Below, in pieces: positions 7,020-54,884 of a DNA stretch of 64,000 nt. The position numbers were made by a program, and so were the translations under genes. Under the pieces are notes generated by a model. That model searched no databases and was not told the DNA's origin. It saw nothing but the letters and a program-made list of their open reading frames with translations. The first letter of the stretch is position 1. Each line of letters begins with the position of its first letter. This stretch comes from Cordylochernes scorpioides (taxonomy: Eukaryota; Arthropoda; Arachnida; Pseudoscorpiones; Chernetidae), in the NCBI GenBank assembly GCA_030710605.1, contig CP092882.1:17480316-17544315 (forward strand). Reading direction: 5' to 3'.

Positions 7020-7270
7020 ATAAGCCTCGAGAAGCCTATGGGACCAAAAATATGTTTGGTCGCAGTGGTACAGCCCGCTCCACGCTGACGAGCGCCAACA
7101 ACGCGAAACGCGTTCGTGAATGGCTTTTCTTGATTTATCAAGAAAATGGGTTGGCCAAATATCAGGGAACAGGTTAAATCGATTTTTAGTTTATTTCTGT
7201 TCCACTAGATGGCGCTCTGCCATCTAAAAGATCATGTGCTCCTGGTCAGGATATGCCTTTTTTGATTTTA
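7020..7270 (+). mobile_element. Family F foldback, half copy with hammerhead
   Basis: Right half of a family-F element. In order it holds a GGGACCAAAAATATG block, the hammerhead at 7079-7120, the inner arm with CTTGATTTATCAAG and GGGTTGGCCAAATATC, and the outer arm with GATGGCGCTCTGCCATCT and GGTCAGGATATGCC. The left arm seen in the full copy at 54165-54547 is absent. No coding capacity, so it must depend on another element for movement. Confidence 0.75.
7079..7120 (+). ncRNA. Hammerhead ribozyme, type I (family F, copy 1)
   Basis: Core CTGACGA lies at 7085-7091 and GAAA at 7105-7108. Stem II (7092-7104) keeps three pairs next to the core, GCG with CGC, and has a mismatch in the fourth. Stem III is the minimal palindrome ACGCGT, and the predicted cleavage is after the second T of GTT (7114). 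Stem I pairs CACG with CGTG; the next pair is broken by an A at 7119. Core residues are intact, so this copy may still cleave but is weaker than copies 2 and 3. Confidence 0.85.
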
Positions 7271-7484
7271 ATATATGTATATGTAAAATAGTAATCAAAA
7301 TATTCAAACAGATTATAAAGGTAATGTGTTTCTGTATTAAATAAAGTCTATATAATGTATATACCAAAAGAGAAGTACCTCTCCCTTTAAATATACATTA
7401 AACACAACACATTATGTTAATCACTTCAGTAAAGAAATTTCGCGGTGTTTCTTTTAAAAAATAGACACTTCGGCCAGTTAAAGT

Positions 7485-7529
7485 TTTCTCAACGTTTCAA
7501 CAAAAATCTTTTGTCTCCGTCAGAAGAAA
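7485..7529 (-). ncRNA. Hammerhead-like motif, family G left arm (core mutated)
   Basis: Mirror copy of the motif at 7639-7683. On the minus strand it reads TTTCTT, then CTGACGG where CTGACGA is expected, then the AGACAAAA hairpin, then GAAACGTT and GAGAAA. The A9 position of the core is G, so this arm is probably inactive. Stem I retains a G-T pair at its base. Confidence 0.6.
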
Positions 7530-7638
7530 TAAAAATAAATAAACATTTGGCAAGGTGTTAAAAATTGTACTGAGGTTACAAGGGCGTTCTTACGCGACCT
7601 CAGAACAAATTTTAACACCTTGCAAAATGCTTTATTTA

Positions 7639-7683
7639 TTTCTCCTGACGAAGACAAAATATTTTTGTTGAAACGTTGAGAAA
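7639..7683 (+). ncRNA. Hammerhead ribozyme, type I (family G)
   Basis: Stem I pairs TTTCTC (7639-7644) with GAGAAA (7678-7683), six perfect pairs. Core CTGACGA is at 7645-7651 and GAAA at 7670-7673. Stem II runs 7652-7669 as A-T, a bulged G, then ACAAAA paired with TTTTGT. Stem III is the four-base palindrome ACGT with no loop, and the cleavage triplet is GTT. A loopless stem III cannot close in one molecule, so cleavage would be expected from a dimer, as known for minimal type-I hammerheads. Confidence 0.75.
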
Positions 7684-7794
7684 ATGAAACATTAACTGGC
7701 CGTAGTGTCTTTTTTATAAAAGAACTATGAATGCCGGTCAGGCAACCTCTATCTTTACGATATATTAAAATGATAAATAGTTTCTATGCATATT

Positions 7795-12050: not shown

Positions 12051-12229
12051 TTAAAAAGGTAAAGAATAAAAAGAAAGTTTTCTTTTTACTCTATTAATCA
12101 CTTATTTATTTGTCGCTTCATTCAATATGAATTTTTACTATTCGAATGTATGCGTGTAGTACATAGTTTACTTCAATAAAAAAGGCATCTCCTGATTGTA
12201 CAACTGAAATTATTGTTATCGTGAAGATA

Positions 12230-12425
12230 GAGGCTGCCTGGCCGGCATTCATATTTCTTGAAAAAAGAGATACTTCGGCCAGTATAAATATTTTTATTAC
12301 CTCGACGTTTCGACAAAAAGCTTTTGAAATATCATAGTCTTCTCTAGTTGCCTTGCCATCTTTTTGTCGAAACGTCGAGGTAATAAAAAGATTTATTCTG
12401 GCCGAAGTATCTCTTTTTTCAATAA
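12230..12425. repeat. Foldback related to family G
   Basis: Inverted arms pair TACCTCGACGTTTCGAC (12299-12315) with its complement at 12366-12390, with GGCCAGTATAAAT-type outer parts. It keeps the GAAACGTC strand of the family-G hammerhead on both arms but has no CTGATGA strand, so no ribozyme can form. The left edge matches the family-G boundary sequence GCCTGGCCGGCATTCAT. Confidence 0.6.
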
Positions 12426-15834: not shown

Positions 15835-15892
15835 AAACATTCAATCTGGTAAAACACGGGCGTTGCCCGGGTCATTCGACTAGTTTATATAG
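15835..15892 (-). repeat. Family R repeat, 5' head fragment
   Basis: On the minus strand this is the start of family R: ACTAGTCGAATGACCCGGGC then AACGCCCG. The GC-rich imperfect palindrome CCCGGGCAACGCCCG stands out in AT-rich surroundings and recurs at 36790 and 52490. Confidence 0.65.
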
Positions 15893-16059: not shown

Positions 16060-16400
16060 TACTACTCCACGCTGACGAGCGCCAACAGCGCGAAACGCGT
16101 TCGTGGATGGTTTTTCTTGATTTATCAAGAAATTGGGTTGGCCAAATATCAGGGAACTGGCTAAATCAATGTTTAGTTGATTTCTGTTCCACCAGATGGC
16201 GCTCTGCCTTCTGTAAAGCACATGTGCTCCTGGTCAGGATATGCCATTTTTATTTTTAATATATATATATATAAAATAAAGAAGACATCTCCTGACCACG
16301 AGCACATGTGCTTTTTAGATGGCAGAGCGCCATCTAGTGGAGCAAAAATAAACAAAAAGATGTTTTGGTCCCAGAGGCTTCTTGAGAAATCAAGAAATGG
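16060..16400. mobile_element. Family F foldback pair with hammerhead
   Basis: A family-F half (16060-16260: hammerhead, inner arm, outer arm) is joined tail to tail with a second half in inverse (16270-16400), so the two outer arms with GCTCTGCC and GGTCAGGA form the palindrome. The right half ends in a CCCAGAGGCTTCTTGAG edge and has lost its ribozyme. Confidence 0.75.
16066..16107 (+). ncRNA. Hammerhead ribozyme, type I (family F, copy 2)
   Basis: Stem I pairs TCCACG (16066-16071) with CGTGGA (16102-16107), six perfect pairs. Core CTGACGA is at 16072-16078. Stem II pairs GCGC with GCGC around loop CAACA (16079-16091). GAAA is at 16092-16095. Stem III is the palindrome ACGCGT and the cleavage triplet is GTT, with cleavage predicted after 16101. 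Every conserved hammerhead residue is present. Minimal type-I hammerheads of this design are known from Penelope-like retroelements. Confidence 0.92.
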
Positions 16401-16465
16401 GTATTTAAGGCCAAATTTGCGTAAAGACGCTTAGCACATGAAAAACAATAGAAAAAATATATATA

Positions 16466-22205: not shown

Positions 22206-22925
22206 TACACTGGTCCGCAAAATTGAAGGAACAACATATTTTTCATTTATCTCAAATTTTATTGAACATATATCAATGAAATTTTATACACAAATTTATT
22301 ATTCCATTATTGATTAGAATACCCGAAATCAAAGAATTCTAACACGTATTTTATGCAAATTATCCGGTCAAGCAATGATCTTCTTGCAGTCAGTGCATAA
22401 ATATCTTGGATATTGTTGTTAATATGGGGTGTGATCACCTTTAACTGATAGGCAGGCTCTACATTGGTGACCCATACTGAGAATTAGGGAGTTTATCAGC
22501 TCCTGTGGAATCAACGCCCACATTTGTGTTAAGGCTGTTTCTAGCTCAAGAGTGTTTCTAGGAGGGGGTTGGAGGGATGAGATCCGCCGTCTTTGGTTGT
22601 CCCATACATGCTCAATGGGATTTAGGTCTGGGAATCGAGCTGGCCAATTCATCCGAGCAATTGCATGGTTTTGGAGAAAAGTGTTGACCACACCAGCCCT
22701 ATGTGGACGGGCATTATCATACATTAGAAGAAAGTTTTCTCCCATTTCCAATGCTTGAGGCATCACATATGCTGCCAAGATCTCGTCCCGATACCTCTGT
22801 CCAGTCAGGGTTCCTTGCCGAAAAATATGGAGTGCTGTGCGACCGCCCAAGAAGATTCCAGCCCAGACCATAAAACCTTGGCTTCTGTAGGGATCCCTTT
22901 CAACCATATTCCAGTAGAGTTGCAG
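22206..22925 (-). mobile_element. Tc1-like transposon, 5'-truncated
   Basis: The right-hand end in element orientation, CACTGGTCCGCAAAATTG next to TA at 22206, is typical of Tc1. The minus-strand frame 22928-22419 covers the second half of a DDE transposase: VWAGIFLGGRT, then LLMYDNARPHRAGVV with the second catalytic D, then DLNPIEHVWD with the final acidic residue. The DNA-binding half and the first D are missing. The 5' edge is joined directly to Tigger transposase sequence at about 22920. Confidence 0.85.
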
Positions 22926-23560
22926 CACAGTAGAACAGTGATTCGTTGCTTCATCCTTTCGACACCACGGCAGTTTTCATCTTTGTGAGCAAGTGTTCGG
23001 TCTGGAATGAGCTGAAAAAAATAATCCTGTTTCGTCTGCATTGTATATGTTGGTTGGGTCATATCCGGAGTTGGCCAGCATACTGTTCAAATTTGTAAGG
23101 TGTTCATCAATGATAGCTGGAGAAATCGATGCGCCTTCCCCACAGAGCCGTCGTTGCGAAATATGGAATCTCCCTTTAAATCGCTGCAGCCACCCACTGC
23201 TGTACGTGAAATTTTCTGGTACGTCCAACTCCTCGCCAAGTTTTTTTGCCTTTTCTCTTAGGAGGTCATCAGTAATAATAATATTATGGCACGCTTTTGG
23301 GTAAACCAGTTGAAGAGAGCGTCTTCCAAGTCACTAAATTTCCCGACTCTTTGTCTCTTTGAAGAACCAACATTATAATTTTCCCACTTCTCAGCCTGAG
23401 TGAGAATATCACGGACAGTTGTTCGTGGAAGTGAGAAACACTCTCCAATCTCATTCTTCGACATTCTTGCCAACTGGCATATCTCCTTCTTTTCAATGGT
23501 GATCGACTCCAGTTTACACTTTTGGGAACTCATGATACGACAATAAGGTTGATGTGTTGA
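22925..23560 (-). pseudogene. Tigger/pogo transposase remnant
   Basis: On the minus strand, 23540-23280 encodes a CENP-B-type helix-turn-helix (KEICQLARMSKNEIGECFSL, then RTTVRDILTQAEKW). Next, 23228-22990 encodes the second CENP-B domain (GWLQRFKGRFHISQRRLCGE) and the first catalytic aspartate in YNADETGLFF. A frame change follows, and the next frame continues with PDRTLAHKDENCRG and RITVLLCCNSTG up to about 22925, where Tc1 sequence begins. Later catalytic residues are missing. The element is dead in cis. Confidence 0.85.
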
Positions 23561-23910
23561 CGTTAGCAAAGGATGAAGCGACTGTGTATCTCCCAGGCAC
23601 AAGCAGATAAAGGGTATGCTGGCTGTTCACACAATCTGTTGTGTCAACAGCAGGCAAAGTCCGGTGCCGCTGGCGGAAAAAAAAAAGACAGGAAAAGGGA
23701 AGTGGGGGATGAGGGACGTTGTGAGCGGCGCTATAACGAGTGGTTTTTGCTACTTGGGATACTAAAAATCAGCGGCGGAAGGCGAACAGCGAGGGAGTGG
23801 CGTTATATCGAGAAAAATACATTGATGTCGATTGGGACAAAACGAAAAAGCGGCGTAAGGCGAGGGTGGCGTTATATCGAGTGGCGTTATAACGAGAGTA
23901 GACTGTATAT

Positions 23911-24157: not shown

Positions 24158-24430
24158 AATTATCCCGCCTGTGTTTCTTTTGAACAAAAAATCGAAATTT
24201 ATTTTAAGAAGAAATAACGATTATTTCTAACCTTAGGGATGAAGTATAAAAGAATGAATTGTGAAGAGTAATGATAAACGGAAAATAAAGTGTCCAGGGA
24301 TGGGAATCGAACCCACAGTGTTCCGCTTACCGGACAGATGCCATGTCCACTAAGCTACCCTGGACCCTCGTTATTTCTCCGTAAAAAAAAATCGATTTTT
24401 CGTTCAAAAGAAACACATGCGGGATATTTT
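24158..24430. mobile_element. Foldback element, family T, with tRNA-like centre
   Basis: Inverted arms of about 60 bp, ATTATCCCGC on the left (24158) and GCGGGATA on the right (24430), share TGTTTCTTTTGAAC and AGAAATAACG. Between them lie an ATTTCTAACCTTAGGGATGA block and a tRNA-Thr-like sequence. The copy at 442-620 has the same arm and block but no tRNA part. Whether the tRNA sequence drives transcription of the element is not known. Confidence 0.65.
24293..24364 (-). tRNA. tRNA-Thr(GGT)-like sequence
   Basis: The minus strand folds as a cloverleaf. The acceptor stem TCCAGGG pairs with CCCTGGA (7 of 7), the D arm contains the box A TAGCTTAGTGG, and the anticodon stem TCTGT pairs with GCGGA. 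The T stem GTGGG pairs with CCCAT around TTCGATT. The anticodon would be GGT (Thr). Position 33, nearly always T, is C here, and the D stem has only three good pairs, so this is probably a tRNA-derived module or pseudogene. It sits in the centre of a foldback repeat. Confidence 0.6.
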
Positions 24431-24862: not shown

Positions 24863-25285
24863 GTTTTATTAAGCCCGTTGAAGAGTGATTATCACTTGAA
24901 AGCTAGCTTTTGTAATAAAAAGAAACTCATTGTGAGAAAATATTTTGTAATTTTAAAACGTTTTTCGAAATTTCATCATGAATAGAGATTTATGTTATTT
25001 ACAATGAAATATATGTGAAAAATATTTTTTAAAATATATATATATACACGGTACTTGTTTTACACGGTTTTCCAAATAAGTTTTTTTTTTATCGCACTAT
25101 ACTAAAATGCGATATTCTACTCTATACTACCTATGTTGGAAAGAATATTGGGAGGCTCTGATTCATGAGGGGGCGAACACCTATTCAGATTTTACAGTTT
25201 AATATACACCTATCCCTCGATTTACACGTTTTTCTCAGGAACGTATCTACCGTGTAAATCGGGGAATAAGTGTATATATGAAAAG
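24863..25285. other. AT-rich DNA with a short inverted repeat
   Basis: CCTCGATTTACACG (25216) and its inverse CGTGTAAATCGGGG (25250-25263) form a small foldback; a related TTTTACACGG lies near 25060. These recall pogo-type MITE ends but I cannot fix boundaries. Confidence 0.3.
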
Positions 25286-25289
25286 GTCA

Positions 25290-25485
25290 GGTGTTGATAT
25301 ATTAAAAACAAAATAAGTCATATCCTGACCGCGCTTACATAAACATTTCTAGATGGCAAAGCGCCATCTAGTGGAACAAAAATAAACTAAACGTTTTTTT
25401 TTTTTATCAACTTGTTCAGTGATATTTGACCAACCCAATTTCTTGATAAATCAAGAAAAGCTAACCACGTACGCGTTTTGAGCTT
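25290..25485. repeat. Family F fragment without ribozyme core
   Basis: Outer arm (ATCCTGACCGCGC, GCGCCATCTAGTGGAAC), then inner arm (TTGATAAATCAAGAAAAGC), then the final part of the minus-strand hammerhead (ACCACGTACGCG). It breaks off at 25482 inside the ribozyme, so strand CTGATGA is lost. Confidence 0.65.
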
Positions 25486-32921: not shown

Positions 32922-33020
32922 TGTATTCCAGAATTGGCCAAATACCCATTCTTGATTAATCAAGAAAAGCTAACCACGTACGCGTTTCGGGCTGTTGGCC
33001 CTCATCAGCGTGGATAATTA
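32922..33020 (-). mobile_element. Family F fragment with hammerhead
   Basis: Inner arm (CCAGAATTGGCCAAATACCC, TTGATTAATCAAG) followed by a complete minus-strand hammerhead. The outer arm is absent. It abuts the Tc1 fragment at 33057. Confidence 0.75.
32973..33014 (-). ncRNA. Hammerhead ribozyme, type I (family F, copy 4)
   Basis: On the minus strand, TCCACG is followed by CTGATGA, then stem II with GGGC paired with GCCC around loop CAACA, GAAA, palindromic stem III ACGCGT, A at the cleavage position (GTA triplet) and CGTGGT closing stem I with five pairs. Compared with copies 2 and 3, the second stem II pair is G-C instead of C-G, a compensatory change. The variable core base is T instead of C. 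All conserved residues are intact. Confidence 0.92.
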
Positions 33021-37864: not shown

Positions 37865-37971
37865 ATTCATTTTTATATATATTGTTACATCATGATTAAT
37901 GGCGTATTTCTTATATTAGTTGTAATATATTTGAAATTTAAATTATATATTTATTTATTTTTATATAAAAT

Positions 37972-37980
37972 ATTCTATGA
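37972..37980 (+). promoter_or_regulatory. Putative TATA box in the gypsy LTR
   Basis: TATATAAAA lies about 90 bp into the LTR and about 85 bp before the AATAAA, a spacing that would give a short R region. Inferred from position only. Confidence 0.4.
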
Positions 37981-38062
37981 TATTTATTTAAAACAGATTA
38001 TTAATTTATCATCATTTGTATTTAGGTACACTGTGACTTCACTGCTCTCTTTGATGTGATAA

Positions 38063-38072
38063 AATAAATAAA
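38063..38072 (+). terminator. Polyadenylation signal in the gypsy LTR
   Basis: Overlapping AATAAA words at 38063-38068 and 38067-38072. In the 3' LTR the same words lie near 42909-42918, where they would end the transcript. The gag start codon lies about 65 bp downstream of this signal, in U5. Confidence 0.5.
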
Positions 38073-38132
38073 GGATTCTGGTGGCTACTTAAAGAAGACT
38101 TATCTCGTTATTCCCTTTTATAAATTTGTAGG

Positions 38133-39281
38133 ATGGTTGAAACACGCTCTGGTAAGATGCAAGACCCAGCACAGGAGAGAATCCAGGCTGAAGAGTCTGC
38201 CAAGCCGCAACCTGGTGCAACAATTGGTGGAGATGCTAGTTCCGACCCAGTTGTCCTGAATCCCAACATCGACATCCCCAAGTATGATGGAACGGAAGAC
38301 CCTCGCCCATGGATTGAATCTCTTGAAGAAATTGGCTTCTTGTACCATTGGGCAGACTACATTATCTCTCGTTATGCCGCCATGAACATGACGGGAAGCG
38401 CTAAAACCTGGTTGAATTTACACAAAGCTAGTTTCACGAGCTGGGAAAATATTAAAATCCGCCTCATTCAGGATTTTTCTTTGGACGCGAATAAAGAAGA
38501 ACTTAGAATGAAGCTCAACAGAATGCAACACTGGAATGAACCAGCAATCAGGTTCGCGGAAGACATTCTAGTGTTGTGCAACAAGGTTGACCCCGCAATG
38601 GAAGAAGAAACAAAAATTGAACATGTTATTGGAGGACTGAAAAAAGAGTACTCATTCGCGCTCTACCTGAACCCTCCTAAAACGACCGATGACCTTCTTG
38701 TCGTGTGCAAGAAAATGGATTCTTTTGAAAAGAAGTATCGGGAACGTGTGGAGAAATCCAGAAACCTATATAACGGTCCACGCTATTCTAGACCCCAACA
38801 ACAATCGAGGTACGTGCCGCCGACTGCCGCACGAAACTACCAGACCACTTCCAGGCCCCAAGCCCCTGTTTCCAATAATTACAAGAACGACTCCCATCCT
38901 ACCCCCAGACAGTATCGAAACAACTTTCCCCAGCCCTCTACCCCTAGACGTCCTTATAATCCTAACTTTGTGCCGAAACCAAACCTTCAGAGAAACACTT
39001 ACAATAAAAGCCAAGAAGTGAGCAAAAATAGGACGGAAGATGGAAGACCAATCTGCTTTAAATGTAACAAGCCAGGGCACGTGGCCCGTTATTGTAGGGT
39101 CAAGTTTATAAGAATCCTAGAAGAGGATCCAGCAGATACCCAAGAGAAGGTCGAAGAAAAATGCCAAATGAATGAAATATCAGAGAAATCAGGACCTCGG
39201 CTTTATGCTGATGTATGTCATAGCACACAGACAAATATTCCTACCCGGAATAGATATTCCGTGTTGGAAGATTTAAACTAA
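38133..39281 (+). CDS. gag: gag polyprotein of the intact gypsy element
   Basis: 382 codons. The ATG at 38133 lies in U5 of the 5' LTR; the next in-frame ATG comes only after the start of the conserved capsid region, so the LTR start is the likely one. Residues of about 50-200 show a Ty3/gypsy capsid pattern (PKYDGTEDPRPWIESL, GSAKTWLNL, MKLNRMQHW). A basic, proline- and glutamine-rich stretch follows. A zinc knuckle CFKCNKPGHVARYC (about residues 307-320) binds nucleic acid in this family. The frame ends at TAA 39279-39281, directly after a slippery heptamer leading into pol. Confidence 0.93.
   Translation: MVETRSGKMQDPAQERIQAEESAKPQPGATIGGDASSDPVVLNPNIDIPKYDGTEDPRPWIESLEEIGFLYHWADYIISRYAAMNMTGSAKTWLNLHKASFTSWENIKIRLIQDFSLDANKEELRMKLNRMQHWNEPAIRFAEDILVLCNKVDPAMEEETKIEHVIGGLKKEYSFALYLNPPKTTDDLLVVCKKMDSFEKKYRERVEKSRNLYNGPRYSRPQQQSRYVPPTAARNYQTTSRPQAPVSNNYKNDSHPTPRQYRNNFPQPSTPRRPYNPNFVPKPNLQRNTYNKSQEVSKNRTEDGRPICFKCNKPGHVARYCRVKFIRILEEDPADTQEKVEEKCQMNEISEKSGPRLYADVCHSTQTNIPTRNRYSVLEDLN
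38225..38242 (+). promoter_or_regulatory. Probable primer-binding site of the gypsy element
   Basis: TGGTGGAGATGC begins two bases after the LTR end, the place and TGG start expected of a primer-binding site. I do not recognise the matching tRNA. Because gag starts upstream, this site is also translated. Confidence 0.4.
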
Positions 39282-42200
39282 GCGTCGCGCCTGAATCTGT
39301 CAATCAAAGCAAGTCGACCATAAACGGAATCAAGAAGTTGGACCCTAAATACAAATTAAAAATTAATGTGGACAAGATAGGGACTTTTGAAGCTTTGGTT
39401 GATACAGGTGCTGACCTCTCAGTGGTCGACCTCAGAACGGCCCTCGATACAGGCCATGGTATAAGTAAACTCGCAAAAATTTGTGCAGGACCCGATGGAA
39501 AAAAATTGGACATGGTAGGAAGTATATTTTTAAATATAAAAATTGATGACGAAACATTATCACACAACTTTGTGATATTGAAAACGCATTTACGGACATT
39601 AATTCTTGGGAGAGATTTCCTTAAGAAAATGAACGCAAAAATAGATTGTAAGCAAGAAACTATAAAATATGATTTGACGAATAATCATGACGAAATCAAT
39701 TTTGAAATGTTGAAAATAAAGAGTGCCAAGGATTCCATTGTACCGGAATGTTCCATGAAATTGATCAAGGCATTGGTAGAAACAGAGGATGGAGAATATA
39801 TTATCGAGGAGAGCAGCAAAATGTTTCAAACAAATGGACTTCGTCTAGCAAGAAGCTTGATCAATGTTATAAATAGGGAAACACACATCTGGATAACTAA
39901 TCCGTATCCTCGACCGTTAAAAATAATGAAAAACCAAACATTGGCTTTTGGAAGTAGTCCAGCGAAAATAAATGTGAGTCGAGAAAGAGAGGTAGAAAAG
40001 AACGAAGAACCTAGATTCCAAATAAACGAAAATCTTTCACCAAAGGAACAGAAGGAGTTAAAACAAGTTTTAGAAAGGTATGGAGATCTTTTTTCATCGA
40101 GATTAGGGAGAACCAATTTGGCAAAACATCGGATAGACACAGAAGACGCGAAGCCAATTAAACACAAGCCTTACCGGGTAAGTGCTAAAGAACGAGATAT
40201 TATAAAAGAGCAAATTGACGAGATGCTTACAGAAGGCATAATTAGACCATCTTCTAGCCCCTGGTCTTTTCCAGTAATATTGGTCAAGAAGCGAGATGGT
40301 AAATACAGATTTTGTGTGGACTACAGAAAACTGAATAATGTGACAGTAAAAGATGTCTATCCGATCCCTAGAATAGACGAAGTTATGGATACTCTCCAAG
40401 GATCTACACACTTCTCAGCAATAGACCTCAGATCTGGATATTGGCAAGTTGAAGTCGAAGAAAGAGACAAAGAGAAAACAGCTTTCACTACAGCGCATGG
40501 ATTATATGAATTCAACGTGATGCCTTTTGGACTTTGTAACGCGCCTGCTACCTTTGAGAGAAATATGGAGAATATGCTTGGAAATCTGAGATGGCAAATT
40601 TGTTTGTGTTATCTGGATGATGTTATCATATATAGCCCGGATTTTCCAACGCACCTCAAAAGACTTGAAGCTGTTTTTAGATGTTTTCGTGAATCTAATT
40701 TAAGGTTAAACGACAAAAAATGCCGATTTGCTTTTGAAGAATTGGAGATTCTCGGCTATATAACGAGCAAACATGGTATAAAACCCGCGGAACATAACAT
40801 CAAAGCTGTCAGAAATTTTCCTCGACCCAAAAAGGTCAAAGAAGTACAATCCTTTTTGGGAATGTGTTCATATTATAGAAAATTTATCAAAGACTTTTCA
40901 AAAATTGCTGACCCTTTGACCAACCTTATAAAAAAAAGTGTATCATTTACCTGGACAGAAAGACAAGAGGAAGCGTTTCAAACCCTAAAAACAGCACTAT
41001 TAAGTCCACCAATTTTAGGTCACTTCAATCCAAATGCACCTACTTATGTTCATACTGATGCGTCCAACATCGGCATAGGTGCAACACTTGTCCAAGACAT
41101 CGGTGGTGAAGAGAAGGTGATCTCATATTTGAGTCGTACCCTAAGTAAAGCGGAGCAAAATTATTCAACCACTGAAAAAGAATGTCTGGCCGTTGTCTGG
41201 TCAATGTCAAAATTACGACCCTACCTTTATGGAAGACACTTTAAAATAGTAACAGACCATCACGCCTTATGCTGGCTCAAAAACTTGAAGGATCCAACAG
41301 GTCGATTGGCAAGATGGGCATTGAAAATTCAAGAATATGACTTCGATATAATACATAAATCGGGAAAGAAGCATCTGGACGCCGATGGCTTATCTAGGGG
41401 GCCCTTACCAGAAACTGATTGGGATGAGGATTTTGAAAGGCTATTTTTAAATCAAATAACAGACGAAGAGGATAAATTTATCGAAAGTGTTAAGAAAAAC
41501 CTTAATGGAAGCAGGCGATCAATTGCGCAAAACTTTAAAGAAGAAGATGGATGCCTCTTTAAGAAAAACCCGAACCCTGAAGGCAGGGCGTGGTTGCTTG
41601 TGGTTCCAGAGAATAAAAAGAGAGAAATTATGAAAGAATATCACAATCATATGTCGAATGGCCATCTGGGCGTTGCCAGAACCATGTACCGAATAAAGAG
41701 TAAATACTTTTGGCCATCCATGCTAAAGGATGTCTCAGAATTCGTTAGGACGTGTCACCTTTGCCAAAGTAGGAAAGGCTCAAACCAATTACCTTCTGGA
41801 CTACTACAGCCCATCCCCCCAGCCAACTTTCCTTTCGAAAGAATTGGAATTGACTTTGTTGGTCCACTACCATCTACGAAAAACAGGAAAAAATGGATAA
41901 TCGTGCTGTCGGACTACTACACTAGATATGCAGAAACAAGAGCAGTCTCGGAAGCAACAGTGAAAGAAGTTTCTAAATTTCTAGTAGAGGATATTTTTCT
42001 TCGGCACGGAGCCCCACAATATCTTATTAGTGACAGAGGCTCTCAATTTACCAGTAATTTAATGAAAGAGGTGATGAAAACGTGCAAGATTAAACATTGC
42101 TTCACAACGAGCTATCATCCCCAGACTAATGGATTGACAGAGCGGTTAAATAGAACATTGATCAATATGCTCAGTATGTATGTGAACACTGATCAGAAAA

Positions 42201-42745
42201 ATTGGGACGAAATACTCCCATTCATCACTCACGCTTACAATACTACAATTCAGGAAACCACAGGATATTCTCCCTTTTTCCTGATGTTTGGAAGAGAACC
42301 CACGTCTCTTTTGGACGACAGGAATATCTCGGTGGACATTGACAAAGATGATTATGATGAATACATAAAACATCACTTAGACAAAATAAACAGAACAAGA
42401 AAATTAGTTATTAACAACACAATAAAGACTCAAGAAAGAATGAAAAAGAACTATGACAAGAAACACATGGAAAGAAGCTACGAACCAGGAGAATTAGTAG
42501 CAGTTTGGACACCAATTAGGAAAATAGGAAAGTGTGAGAAACTACTGAGAAAATATTTTGGCCCATATAGAATATTAAAGAAGCTGTCCAACGTAAATTA
42601 CTTAATTGAACCAAAAGATAATCCTGGCCAAGACCCATTGATTGTCCATGTCTCAAGAATCAAACCCTATTTTGAAAGAATTGATGAGGTCAATCACGAG
42701 GACGTGACGACCTCTGGAGAGGGGGAAGTGTTACATCATGATTAA
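39254..42745 (+). CDS. pol: pol polyprotein: protease, RT, RNase H, integrase
   Basis: The frame is open from 39254, in the -1 frame relative to gag. No ATG starts it early, so it is probably made as a gag-pol fusion. Residues counted from 39338: protease DTGADLSVVD near 22; RT with CVDYRKLN, FGLCNAPATF and the catalytic YLDDV near 425; RNase H with HTDASN near 573; integrase zinc finger (HNHMSNGHLG, CHLCQ) near 770-810; integrase core GIDFVGPLP, SDRGSQF and TERLNR (D, D, E); and a C-terminal FGPY region near 1071. No stop or frameshift is seen. The stop codon at 42743 lies inside the 3' LTR. Confidence 0.95.
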   Translation: MFRVGRFKLSVAPESVNQSKSTINGIKKLDPKYKLKINVDKIGTFEALVDTGADLSVVDLRTALDTGHGISKLAKICAGPDGKKLDMVGSIFLNIKIDDETLSHNFVILKTHLRTLILGRDFLKKMNAKIDCKQETIKYDLTNNHDEINFEMLKIKSAKDSIVPECSMKLIKALVETEDGEYIIEESSKMFQTNGLRLARSLINVINRETHIWITNPYPRPLKIMKNQTLAFGSSPAKINVSREREVEKNEEPRFQINENLSPKEQKELKQVLERYGDLFSSRLGRTNLAKHRIDTEDAKPIKHKPYRVSAKERDIIKEQIDEMLTEGIIRPSSSPWSFPVILVKKRDGKYRFCVDYRKLNNVTVKDVYPIPRIDEVMDTLQGSTHFSAIDLRSGYWQVEVEERDKEKTAFTTAHGLYEFNVMPFGLCNAPATFERNMENMLGNLRWQICLCYLDDVIIYSPDFPTHLKRLEAVFRCFRESNLRLNDKKCRFAFEELEILGYITSKHGIKPAEHNIKAVRNFPRPKKVKEVQSFLGMCSYYRKFIKDFSKIADPLTNLIKKSVSFTWTERQEEAFQTLKTALLSPPILGHFNPNAPTYVHTDASNIGIGATLVQDIGGEEKVISYLSRTLSKAEQNYSTTEKECLAVVWSMSKLRPYLYGRHFKIVTDHHALCWLKNLKDPTGRLARWALKIQEYDFDIIHKSGKKHLDADGLSRGPLPETDWDEDFERLFLNQITDEEDKFIESVKKNLNGSRRSIAQNFKEEDGCLFKKNPNPEGRAWLLVVPENKKREIMKEYHNHMSNGHLGVARTMYRIKSKYFWPSMLKDVSEFVRTCHLCQSRKGSNQLPSGLLQPIPPANFPFERIGIDFVGPLPSTKNRKKWIIVLSDYYTRYAETRAVSEATVKEVSKFLVEDIFLRHGAPQYLISDRGSQFTSNLMKEVMKTCKIKHCFTTSYHPQTNGLTERLNRTLINMLSMYVNTDQKNWDEILPFITHAYNTTIQETTGYSPFFLMFGREPTSLLDDRNISVDIDKDDYDEYIKHHLDKINRTRKLVINNTIKTQERMKKNYDKKHMERSYEPGELVAVWTPIRKIGKCEKLLRKYFGPYRILKKLSNVNYLIEPKDNPGQDPLIVHVSRIKPYFERIDEVNHEDVTTSGEGEVLHHD
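39272..39278 (+). promoter_or_regulatory. -1 ribosomal frameshift site UUUAAAC
   Basis: In the gag frame the heptamer is T TTA AAC, directly followed by the gag stop TAA. It lies in the 28-nt gag-pol overlap (39254-39281), and pol is in the -1 frame, exactly as this X-XXY-YYZ class of slippery site requires. UUUAAAC is one of the most efficient known eukaryotic slippery heptamers. I could not establish a downstream pseudoknot by eye. Confidence 0.85.
42715..42728 (+). promoter_or_regulatory. Polypurine tract of the gypsy element
   Basis: GGAGAGGGGGAAG ends directly at the first base of the 3' LTR (42729). It is also the last coding part of pol before the LTR. Confidence 0.8.
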
Positions 42746-43068
42746 TGGCGTATTTCTTATATTAGTTGTAATATATTTGAAATTTAAATTATATATTTAT
42801 TTATTTTTATATAAAATATTCTATGATATTTATTTAAAACAGATTATTAATTTATCATCATTTGTATTTAGGTACACTGTGACTTCACTGCTCTCTTTGA
42901 TGTGATAAAATAAATAAAGGATTCTGGTGGCTACTTAAAGAAGACTTATCTCGTTATTCCCTTTTATAAATTTGTAGGATGGTTGAAACACGCTCTGGTA
43001 AGATGCAAGACCCAGCACAGGAGAGAATCCAGGCTGAAGAGTCTGCCAAGCCGCAACCTGGTGCAACA
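42729..43068 (+). repeat. 3' LTR of the intact gypsy element
   Basis: 340 bp, identical to the 5' LTR as far as I can compare. It includes the pol stop codon at its start and a repeat of the first 30 codons of gag at its end. Confidence 0.95.
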
Positions 43069-43121: not shown

Positions 43122-43192
43122 TGCATCGGCCGGGAATCGAACTCTGGCCGCCCGCGTGGCAGGCGAGCATTCTACCACTGAACCACCGATGC
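43122..43192 (-). tRNA. tRNA-Gly (GCC)
   Basis: The minus strand reads GCATCGG (acceptor), TGGTTCAGTGG (box A), anticodon arm CTCGC, CTGCCAC, GCGGG with anticodon GCC, then GTTCGATTCCC (box B) and CCGATGC with A at position 73. The acceptor stem is perfect, 7 of 7. A run of T directly after position 73 serves as RNA polymerase III terminator. The T stem has two mismatches (CAGAG against CCCGG), so function is likely but not certain. It lies inside the nested repeats, not in a tRNA cluster. Confidence 0.78.
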
Positions 43193-53824: not shown

Positions 53825-54105
53825 AACATCTCCTGATCGTGCAACTAAAAGTTGCTGATGACTTACGCCTCCTATCGGAATAAATATCAACTAATCGTTT
53901 ATTTTTAATTATTACAGAATTGGCCAAATATCCTTTCTTTGATTAATCAAGAAAAGCTAACCACGTACGCGTTTCGGGCTGTTGATCCTTATCAGCGTGG
54001 TGCAAGCTGTACCTCAACAACTAAAAAAGCTGGTCATTCAGGCATCCGGAAAAATCATTAAACAGGTAGTCAAGGCCAGAAGTGCGTGAGGACGCTAAAC
54101 AATGT
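53825..54105 (-). mobile_element. Family F-related foldback fragment with damaged hammerhead
   Basis: Begins like the arm of the 2910-3370 element (GTGCAACTAAAAGTTGCTGA), continues with the inner F arm (AATTGGCCAAATATCC) and a minus-strand hammerhead remnant at 53960-54001. This copy links the two foldback types. Confidence 0.65.
53960..54001 (-). ncRNA. Hammerhead remnant (family F, copy 5)
   Basis: On the minus strand ACCACG is followed by CTGATAA: the conserved G8 is A, with C3 unchanged, and stem II has two broken pairs (GGAT against GCCC). GAAA, stem III and stem I are kept. Expected to be inactive. Confidence 0.7.
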
Positions 54106-54164
54106 TAAAAATTAGTACAAAAGTAAAATTGTACTATTTTACACACATACATACCATTTTATTA

Positions 54165-54547
54165 AAAATAAAAAAGGCATCTCCTGACCACGAGCACATG
54201 TGCTTTTTTGGATGGCAGAGCGCCATCTAGTGGAGCAAAAATAAACTAAACGTTTATTTAGCTTGCTCCGTGATATTTGGCCAACCCAATTTCTTGATTT
54301 ATCGGGAAGCCATTGGGACCAAAAATATTTTTGGTCGCAGTGGTTACAGCCTTCTCCACGCTGACGAGCGCCAACAGCGCGAAACGCGTTCGTGGATGGC
54401 TTTTCTTGATAAATCAAGAAATTGGGTTGGCCAAATATCACGGAGCAAGCTAAATAAACGTTTAGTTTATTTTTGCTCCACTAGATGGCGCTCTGCCATC
54501 CAAAAAAGCACATGTGCTCGTGGTCAGGAGATTTTTTTTTATTTTTA
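54165..54547 (+). mobile_element. Family F foldback, full copy with hammerhead
   Basis: Best full copy. Left arm 54170-54305 and right arm 54403-54547 are almost perfect inverses (AAGGCATCTCCTGACC at the left edge, GGTCAGGAG at the right). The space between them holds GGGACCAAAAATA and the hammerhead. The whole RNA would fold into one long hairpin with the ribozyme at its tip. No protein is encoded. Confidence 0.85.
54355..54396 (+). ncRNA. Hammerhead ribozyme, type I (family F, copy 3)
   Basis: Identical in all 42 positions to copy 2 at 16066-16107. TCCACG and CGTGGA form stem I, CTGACGA is at 54361-54367, stem II at 54368-54380, GAAA at 54381-54384, and the GTT cleavage triplet ends at 54390. 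Intact. Confidence 0.92.
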
Positions 54548-54884
54548 ATATCAACACCTGACCCACTTATCTTTTATTTTTTCTATTGTTTTTTCATACC
54601 ATTTTATATGGTAAAAAGCAGAGACCAAATTACATCAGTGTTATCAAAGAGAGAGGATACCAAACAACTTGTATATCTTCGCATTACTCAATATAAGTTA
54701 GTAAATAGAAGGGTCTCCTAAACCTTAAACAAAAGGCCAGTTTTAAAAATATGTTTTAATAAATACAGAAATTTAACCCATATACAACGGGAAAATGTAA
54801 AGAATAATTCAAACCTTAAAGGTTTTTGCGAGTTGATAGAAATAATGAGTAGTTTCTCTTTAATATATATTTTTGGACAATACA

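What the first reader, a model, noticed from the sequence alone, without database searches (positions are those of the whole stretch)
54355..54396. Complete minimal type-I hammerhead ribozymes in foldback family F
Copies at 16066-16107 and 54355-54396 are identical and have every conserved hammerhead residue, six-pair stem I, four-pair stem II, palindromic stem III and a legal GTT cleavage triplet. Further copies are at 7079 and 32973 (minus). In the full F element the ribozyme lies at the tip of a long hairpin of about 135 bp. Hammerheads of this design are known in Penelope-like elements; their association with a long foldback body is the point to follow.
Basis: partly seen in the sequence, partly recalled or inferred. 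Interest (0 to 1): 0.88.

Follow-up and report, generated by a model that had tools for sequence, protein, structure and literature searches.

The report
Ribozyme hitchhiker using Penelope insertion machinery
The ribozyme belongs to a very abundant, protein-free repeat of about 350 bases in a pseudoscorpion, and the way its copies sit in the DNA suggests that it is inserted, often two copies head to head, by the enzyme of Penelope-type jumping genes, which bears on the open question of what moves such ribozyme repeats in animals.

Summary
The hammerheads are real: four exact cores in the window against 0.07 expected, and 24,628 in the 2.6-Gb genome against 0 for the reversed pattern. The genome is Cordylochernes scorpioides. 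"Foldback family F" is not a fixed foldback. The unit is a non-coding monomer of 338-350 nt, found in tandem at that period. 37 of 51 insertions studied are head-to-head pairs of arms of independent length. In 33 of the 37 one outer end lies near monomer position 207 and the other near 254; none has two alike. Autonomous Penelope-like elements here (RT + GIY-YIG) are also found head to head, with a roughly 35-nt "tail" on one end only in 13 of 14 resolved pairs. In F and in the Penelope element compared, the tail-less end falls in an A/T-rich loop (29 and 31 nt) closed by a 7-bp stem. F is best read as a hammerhead retrozyme copied, perhaps from RNA circles, onto both nicked target strands by a Penelope-type enzyme. 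Cleavage, circles and enzyme are untested.

The parts
54160..54597 (.). complete F insertion: minus arm and plus arm joined head to head
   Evidence: L001
54160..54313 (-). minus arm, monomer positions 206 to 52, tail-less outer end
54286..54597 (+). plus arm, monomer 291-350 then 1-254, tailed outer end (overlaps the minus arm by 28 bp)
54355..54396 (+). type I hammerhead ribozyme, predicted cut after 54390
54150..54162 (.). left copy of the 13-bp target site duplication CATACCATTTTAT
54595..54607 (.). right copy of the target site duplication
54522..54563 (+). GGTCAGG-loop-CCTGACC hairpin; site A (monomer about 205-207, the end type of the other arm) lies in its loop
16062..16262 (+). F single arm, monomer 7-207, ribozyme at 16066-16107
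16267..16457 (-). second F arm (monomer 207-117, then 339-234), tail to tail with the previous one across a TA repeat
7026..7274 (+). F copy with mildly decayed ribozyme at 7079-7120
32934..33017 (-). F fragment of the GGGC/GCCC stem II subfamily, GTA triplet
53934..54011 (-). older F fragment with a broken core (CTGATAA)
25285..25484 (-). old F copy, about 80% identical
7449..7757 (.). Penelope-like pLTR pair, head to head, its own hammerhead on the right arm, tail on the right end only
12220..12418 (.). second Penelope-like pLTR pair (bounds by eye), tail on one end only, AACAATAAT on both sides, beside an F-like remnant

Best explanation
F is a non-autonomous, non-coding hammerhead retroelement (a metazoan non-LTR retrozyme) with a monomer of about 350 nt. 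Proposed cycle: tandem copies are transcribed; hammerheads cut the RNA into monomers, probably as dimers because stem III is the palindrome ACGCGT; the monomers are closed into circles. A Penelope-type RT/GIY-YIG enzyme recognises a stem-loop in the RNA, nicks both strands of an A/T-rich target about 9-14 bp apart, and starts reverse transcription on each strand at one of two fixed internal sites: A (monomer about 205-207) on one strand and B (about 254) on the other. Each cDNA runs for an independent distance, sometimes more than once round the circle. The two are then joined at their 5' sides, giving the head-to-head 'foldback' with one tailed end and a target site duplication. Shown: ribozyme sequence and covariation, monomer period, head-to-head layout, one-A-one-B rule in the sample, duplications in about half of the scored copies, same layout in autonomous elements. 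Inferred: transcription, cleavage, circles, the enzyme, order of steps.
For: Head-to-head in 37 of 51 insertions; A+B ends in 33 of 37, A+A or B+B in 0 (exact ends printed). Duplications of >=9 bp that contain G or C in 17 of 36 scored, against 13.8% of 1260 mismatched flank pairs. Among the first 100 core places (not ranked by similarity) 16 neighbour pairs lie within 1.5 kb: 8 of 8 same-strand pairs are 338-350 bp apart, including a run of five units, and 7 of 8 opposite-strand pairs are head to head (recount). 69 of 87 arms read through the cut site, 47 of 87 exceed one unit, longest 953 nt. Autonomous elements in this genome: RT + C-terminal GIY-YIG in L053 and L054; 11 of 11 neighbour pairs within 10 kb among 146 listed GIY-YIG matches are head to head; one tail in 13 of 14 resolved pairs. 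A 7-bp stem encloses the A site at offsets 22/7 in F and 23/8 in L054; 177 of 20,000 shuffles of the F region do so. Literature: in the anole PLE the enzyme cuts and extends both strands and starts at two adjacent internal sites (PMC11167929, parts 1-2 of 4 read). The A. vaga paper gives duplications of 8-10 bp where present, a 31-bp tail optionally on one of the inverted pLTRs, and head-to-head as the commonest inverted layout (PMC3846280, passages).
Against: No RNA data, so cleavage, circles and enzyme are unproven. The anole work found that ribozyme mutants still insert, that unprocessed RNA is the main substrate in vitro, and that no RNA-seq ends lie at the cut site (PMC11167929), which speaks against a need for cut or circular templates; it also saw no difference in start site between strands. 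4 of 37 head-to-head insertions have an end that is neither A nor B: L027 clearly; in L029 and L056 another repeat appears to interrupt the end (by eye); L064 unresolved. One autonomous pair (L053) has two tails. 14 of 51 insertions are not head-to-head pairs (13 single arms, one + then - pair). 19 of 36 show no G/C-containing duplication of >=9 bp, and TA-repeat targets make duplications hard to score. F and the Penelope elements share no sequence that I saw outside the ribozyme core and the stem-loop shape. Tail lengths differ (about 47 against about 35 nt). The stem-loops are not unusually stable as folded pieces (z between -0.57 and -2.70). Long arms could also come from uncut linear multimers.
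Confidence: 0.74

Rival explanations
1. F is the pseudo-LTR of an autonomous Penelope-like family whose coding copies were not sampled; the F copies are solo or partial pLTRs, not an independent retrozyme.
For: Solo pLTR pairs of the coding families look much the same, and those pLTRs carry hammerheads.
Against: In 51 F loci with about 1.5 kb on each side no Penelope ORF is joined to F in a regular way (only scattered short matches, in 11 of 51 loci). Tandem copies stand exactly 338-350 bp apart, up to five units, which leaves no room for an ORF. Of 20 GIY-YIG loci one (L043) holds a clear F copy, and there F breaks into or truncates the GIY-YIG element; L045 has a 27-nt weak match only.
Confidence: 0.2
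2. Head-to-head F arises from an antisense template that primes itself, not from two separate priming events (the self-priming idea in the A. vaga paper).
For: PMC3846280 (passages) proposes this for PLE inverted repeats with palindromes at the join; F's monomer also has palindromic stretches at about 315-349 and 58-77.
Against: The two arms start at different fixed sites (A and B). Only 3 of 36 joins have an arm end at monomer 305-350 (short hits to that palindrome had been filtered out before).
Confidence: 0.12
3. Ordinary foldback or MITE-type DNA transposon that carries a ribozyme by chance.
For: Long inverted arms and short target duplications.
Against: No fixed terminal inverted repeat: the two outer ends differ by about 47 nt, arm lengths range from 26 to 953 nt, and tandem units occur.
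Confidence: 0.03
4. LINE-type insertion with twin priming.
For: Twin priming also gives head-to-head joins and short duplications (recalled).
Against: Twin priming inverts the 5' part of one copy and leaves one 3' end (recalled); here both outer ends are 3' start sites, and no poly(A) is seen at the ends listed.
Confidence: 0.03

Closest known systems
Metazoan non-LTR retrozymes (PMC7229834, parts 1-4 of 6 read)
   Same: Type I hammerhead in a non-coding, low-GC tandem monomer of 170-400 nt, strongly self-paired RNA (z -5.7), many copies, co-existing with Penelope elements.
   Different: Described there as tandem repeats; a review by the same group says no motif names the partner (PMC7761336, passage). 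F shows a head-to-head layout with two fixed ends. Circles not shown for F.
Penelope-like elements (RT plus C-terminal GIY-YIG) and their pLTRs
   Same: Head-to-head copies, tail on one end, short duplications, A/T-rich targets, minimal hammerhead.
   Different: F has no RT/GIY-YIG ORF, a different ribozyme and body sequence, and a longer tail (about 47 nt).
SINE and LINE partnership (recalled)
   Same: A small non-coding element that seems to imitate the start structure of an autonomous element.
   Different: Proposed here for a Penelope-type partner and a self-cleaving, possibly circular RNA.

Membership tests
Type I hammerhead ribozyme | conserved core, stems I and II, NUH cut triplet | tested here: met
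   (90.8% of 240 cells paired in 20 chosen sequences; two pairs change on both sides, 13 cells)
Type I hammerhead ribozyme | Rfam curated score | tested here: not met
   29.9 bits at best against 52 for HH9; Hammerhead_1 search uninformative
Type I hammerhead ribozyme | self-cleavage in magnesium | not testable with these tools
   needs bench work
Metazoan non-LTR retrozyme | tandem monomers of 150-450 bp with type I hammerhead, GC below 50% | tested here: met
   338-350 period, GC 40.6% in one monomer
Metazoan non-LTR retrozyme | no protein-coding capacity | tested here: met
   longest stop-to-stop frame 83 aa in one doubled monomer
Metazoan non-LTR retrozyme | expressed as linear and circular RNA | not testable with these tools
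   no RNA data
Penelope-like element | ORF with RT and GIY-YIG | tested here: not met
   none regularly joined to F in 51 loci
Penelope-like element | direct and head-to-head inverted copies, tail on one end, short duplications | tested here: met
Penelope-like element | start of reverse transcription at two internal sites | tested here: inconclusive
   inferred from DNA ends only

The most novel reading that the evidence does not exclude
Each insertion records one asymmetric, two-sided priming event: a Penelope-type enzyme, probably a dimer, holds one ribozyme RNA circle by a stem-loop and starts on one DNA strand inside the loop (site A) and on the other strand beyond the stem (site B), never at the same site twice; animal retrozymes are obligate parasites of this machinery and imitate its start structure.
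Probability: 0.44. Interest if true: 0.78.

Novelty: new variant of a known kind. Interest (0 to 1): 0.62.

Why it matters
A 2020 review says that metazoan retrozymes show no conserved motif that would name the autonomous element whose machinery they use (PMC7761336, passage), and the primary paper calls PLEs a strong candidate (PMC7229834). The F end structure gives a testable sign of the partner. It also gives many natural records of how a Penelope-type enzyme may use two start sites, which in-vitro work on one PLE has only begun to describe. I saw no title or abstract start that reports this for retrozymes in the rows shown, which cover open-licence PMC papers only.

Tried and rejected
Rfam Hammerhead_1 over the genome: silent also in controls, so not used. 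Stop of cDNAs at the ribozyme cut site: 4 of 87 arm ends lie within 7 nt of it, about what chance gives (3.7 by hand), so no sign of cleaved linear templates; this does not prove circles. A pile-up of arm lengths just over one unit was seen, but it is largely forced by the query (the matched arm must exceed about 350 nt), so I dropped it; among the 37 partner arms, not so forced, 10 exceed 350 nt (by hand). Sequence homology between F and Penelope pLTRs: none seen outside the core and the stem-loop form, by eye; no dedicated search was made. Counts of the mismatched stem II combinations in the genome were asked for but did not complete, nor the CG-type count (106); only the GC-type count (13,192) is known. 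In one search two of five measures do not favour the structure: pairs with a change on both sides (2 against a shuffled mean of 2.5) and further pair types (9 against 8.7). In a folded 600-nt tandem piece one ribozyme forms stems I and II and the other does not.

Limits of the end census: matches under 25 nt or under 80% identity, and short hits to the 315-349 palindrome, were left out, so a 'single arm' may hide a short second arm.

Full report
What was checked. The two 42-nt ribozymes are identical and complete. The motif occurs four times in the window against 0.07 expected. Rfam finds two HH9 matches with E below 0.01 and one at 0.64, all below the curated score. In the genome a strict 29-nt core occurs 12,341 + 12,287 times, and the reversed control 0 times. 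The stem II form GGGC..GCCC makes up 13,192 of these (6659 + 6533). In 20 chosen diverse copies 90.8% of 240 pair cells are standard pairs; one stem II pair changes from C-G to G-C in 7 copies and the outer stem I pair from U-A to A-U in 6, and none of 500 shuffles reached the covariation score, while two other measures do not exceed the shuffles. These are probably only one or two events shared by subfamilies, so the shuffle count overstates the support.

Where it is. The length of contig C4 (129,427,685) equals that of the contig behind a protein of Cordylochernes scorpioides found with a Penelope ORF of this genome, which names the pseudoscorpion.

What the unit is. Among the first 100 core places on contig C1, which are not ranked by similarity, there are 16 neighbour pairs within 1.5 kb: 8 on the same strand, all 338-350 bp apart (one run of five units), 7 head to head and 1 tail to tail. 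One monomer RNA is strongly self-paired (z -5.7), has GC 40.6% and no long frame (83 aa at most when doubled).

How the copies sit. From two searches (the best 40 of 717 and of 1540 candidates scored, 30 loci fetched each) I kept 51 separate insertions. 37 are head to head, 13 are single arms and 1 is a + then - pair. In 33 of the 37 one outer end lies at monomer 203-211 and the other at 238-258; none has two ends of one class; 4 have one end elsewhere. If the two ends were independent and equally likely, 33 of 33 mixed would have a chance of about 1 in 8.6 billion. The typical exact ends are ...TTTTTAAT(AT)| and ...TTTTCTCA(T)|; L008 and L009 end about 14 nt short of the second and were counted in its class. 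Arms are 26 to 953 nt long, 47 of 87 exceed one unit, and 69 of 87 read through the cut site; the query favours long arms. Target duplications of at least 9 bp with a G or C occur in 17 of 36 scored, against 13.8% of 1260 mismatched flank pairs. The window copy has CATACCATTTTAT on both sides (54150-54162, 54595-54607).

The autonomous comparison. GIY-YIG gave 146 listed matches out of 17,015 candidates (150 scored). Eleven neighbour pairs lie within 10 kb, and all eleven are head to head. L053 and L054 encode RT plus C-terminal GIY-YIG; L051 has GIY-YIG near the N-terminus, as in permuted (Naiad-type; name recalled) elements. L054 has arms of 2402 bp that are 100% identical, so it is probably recent. 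Of the pairs whose two ends could be read, 13 of 14 have one tailed and one tail-less end: seven of nine fetched pairs (L085/86 and L101/102 not resolved; in L099 the tail-less end stops somewhat earlier than usual), L054 and window 7449-7757, L104-L106 (the query contained the tail, so one tailed end was selected there, L106 is judged from BLAST ends only, and L103, L107 and L108 were not resolved), and window 12220-12418. L053 has two tails. L051 was cut by the fetch. Duplications read by eye include TATAATGGAT, AAGTTTTTTGTT, TCTATACTT, AAGAATATTAG and GATTCAGGTA.

A shared start structure. In F and in L054 the tail-less end falls 22-23 nt into a loop of 29 and 31 nt closed by a perfect 7-bp stem (GGTCAGG/CCTGACC in F, CTGGCCG/CGGCCAG in L054). 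Shuffled F sequence does this in 177 of 20,000 trials (the window of offsets was chosen after seeing the pattern). RNA folding predicts these stems, although the pieces are not unusually stable (z -0.57 to -2.70). An older F copy in L025 keeps the stem through two G-U changes.

Reading. The foldback is best explained as an insertion product, not as the body of the element: two cDNAs, one per target strand, each started at a different fixed site, joined at their 5' sides. In-vitro work on the anole PLE shows cutting and extension on both strands and two internal start sites, without a difference between strands (PMC11167929). The A+B rule in the F insertions is therefore a further observation. 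The same paper found that ribozyme mutants still insert and that uncut RNA is the main substrate in vitro, so the part of the ribozyme and of circles in insertion is the weakest step here. A one-sided tail and head-to-head layout are already described for PLEs (PMC3846280), so those features are known. What is added is that a protein-free hammerhead repeat shows them.

Limits. No RNA, no bench data; samples are the best-scoring copies; circles are inferred from arms that pass the cut site and exceed one unit; an unsampled autonomous element with F ends is possible (about 0.2).

Noticed in passing
window 37883-43028: Ty3/gypsy-type element (type judged from the translation) with 300-bp repeats 100% identical at both ends (37883-38182, 42729-43028) and two long overlapping frames (385 and 1163 aa): probably a recent insertion.
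   Followed up: partly
window 54478-54496: F carries CCACTAGATGGCGCTCTGC, which resembles the CTCF binding core (motif recalled, not tested); with so many F copies this could matter for chromatin in this species.
   Followed up: no
window 7449-7757 and 12220-12418: Two head-to-head Penelope pLTR pairs; the one at 7449-7757 carries a second hammerhead type (CTGACGAAGACAAAA..GAAACGTTGAG).
   Followed up: yes
L051; L031 and its relatives among L033-L046: A second Penelope lineage with GIY-YIG at the N-terminal side; L051 is inserted head to head.
   Followed up: partly
L097: A Penelope element and what looks like an F end share one TA repeat.
   Followed up: no
window 15857-15884: CGGGCGTTGCCCGGGTCATTCGACTAGT looks like a Helitron 3' end (recalled); similar sequences abut F copies in L007, L027 and L083.
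   Followed up: no
window 22419-23626: Broken frames resembling a DDE transposase of the pogo/Tigger kind (from the translation only).
   Followed up: no
window 43122-43192 and 24292-24364: Two tRNA genes on the minus strand, above Rfam's gathering score.
   Followed up: no
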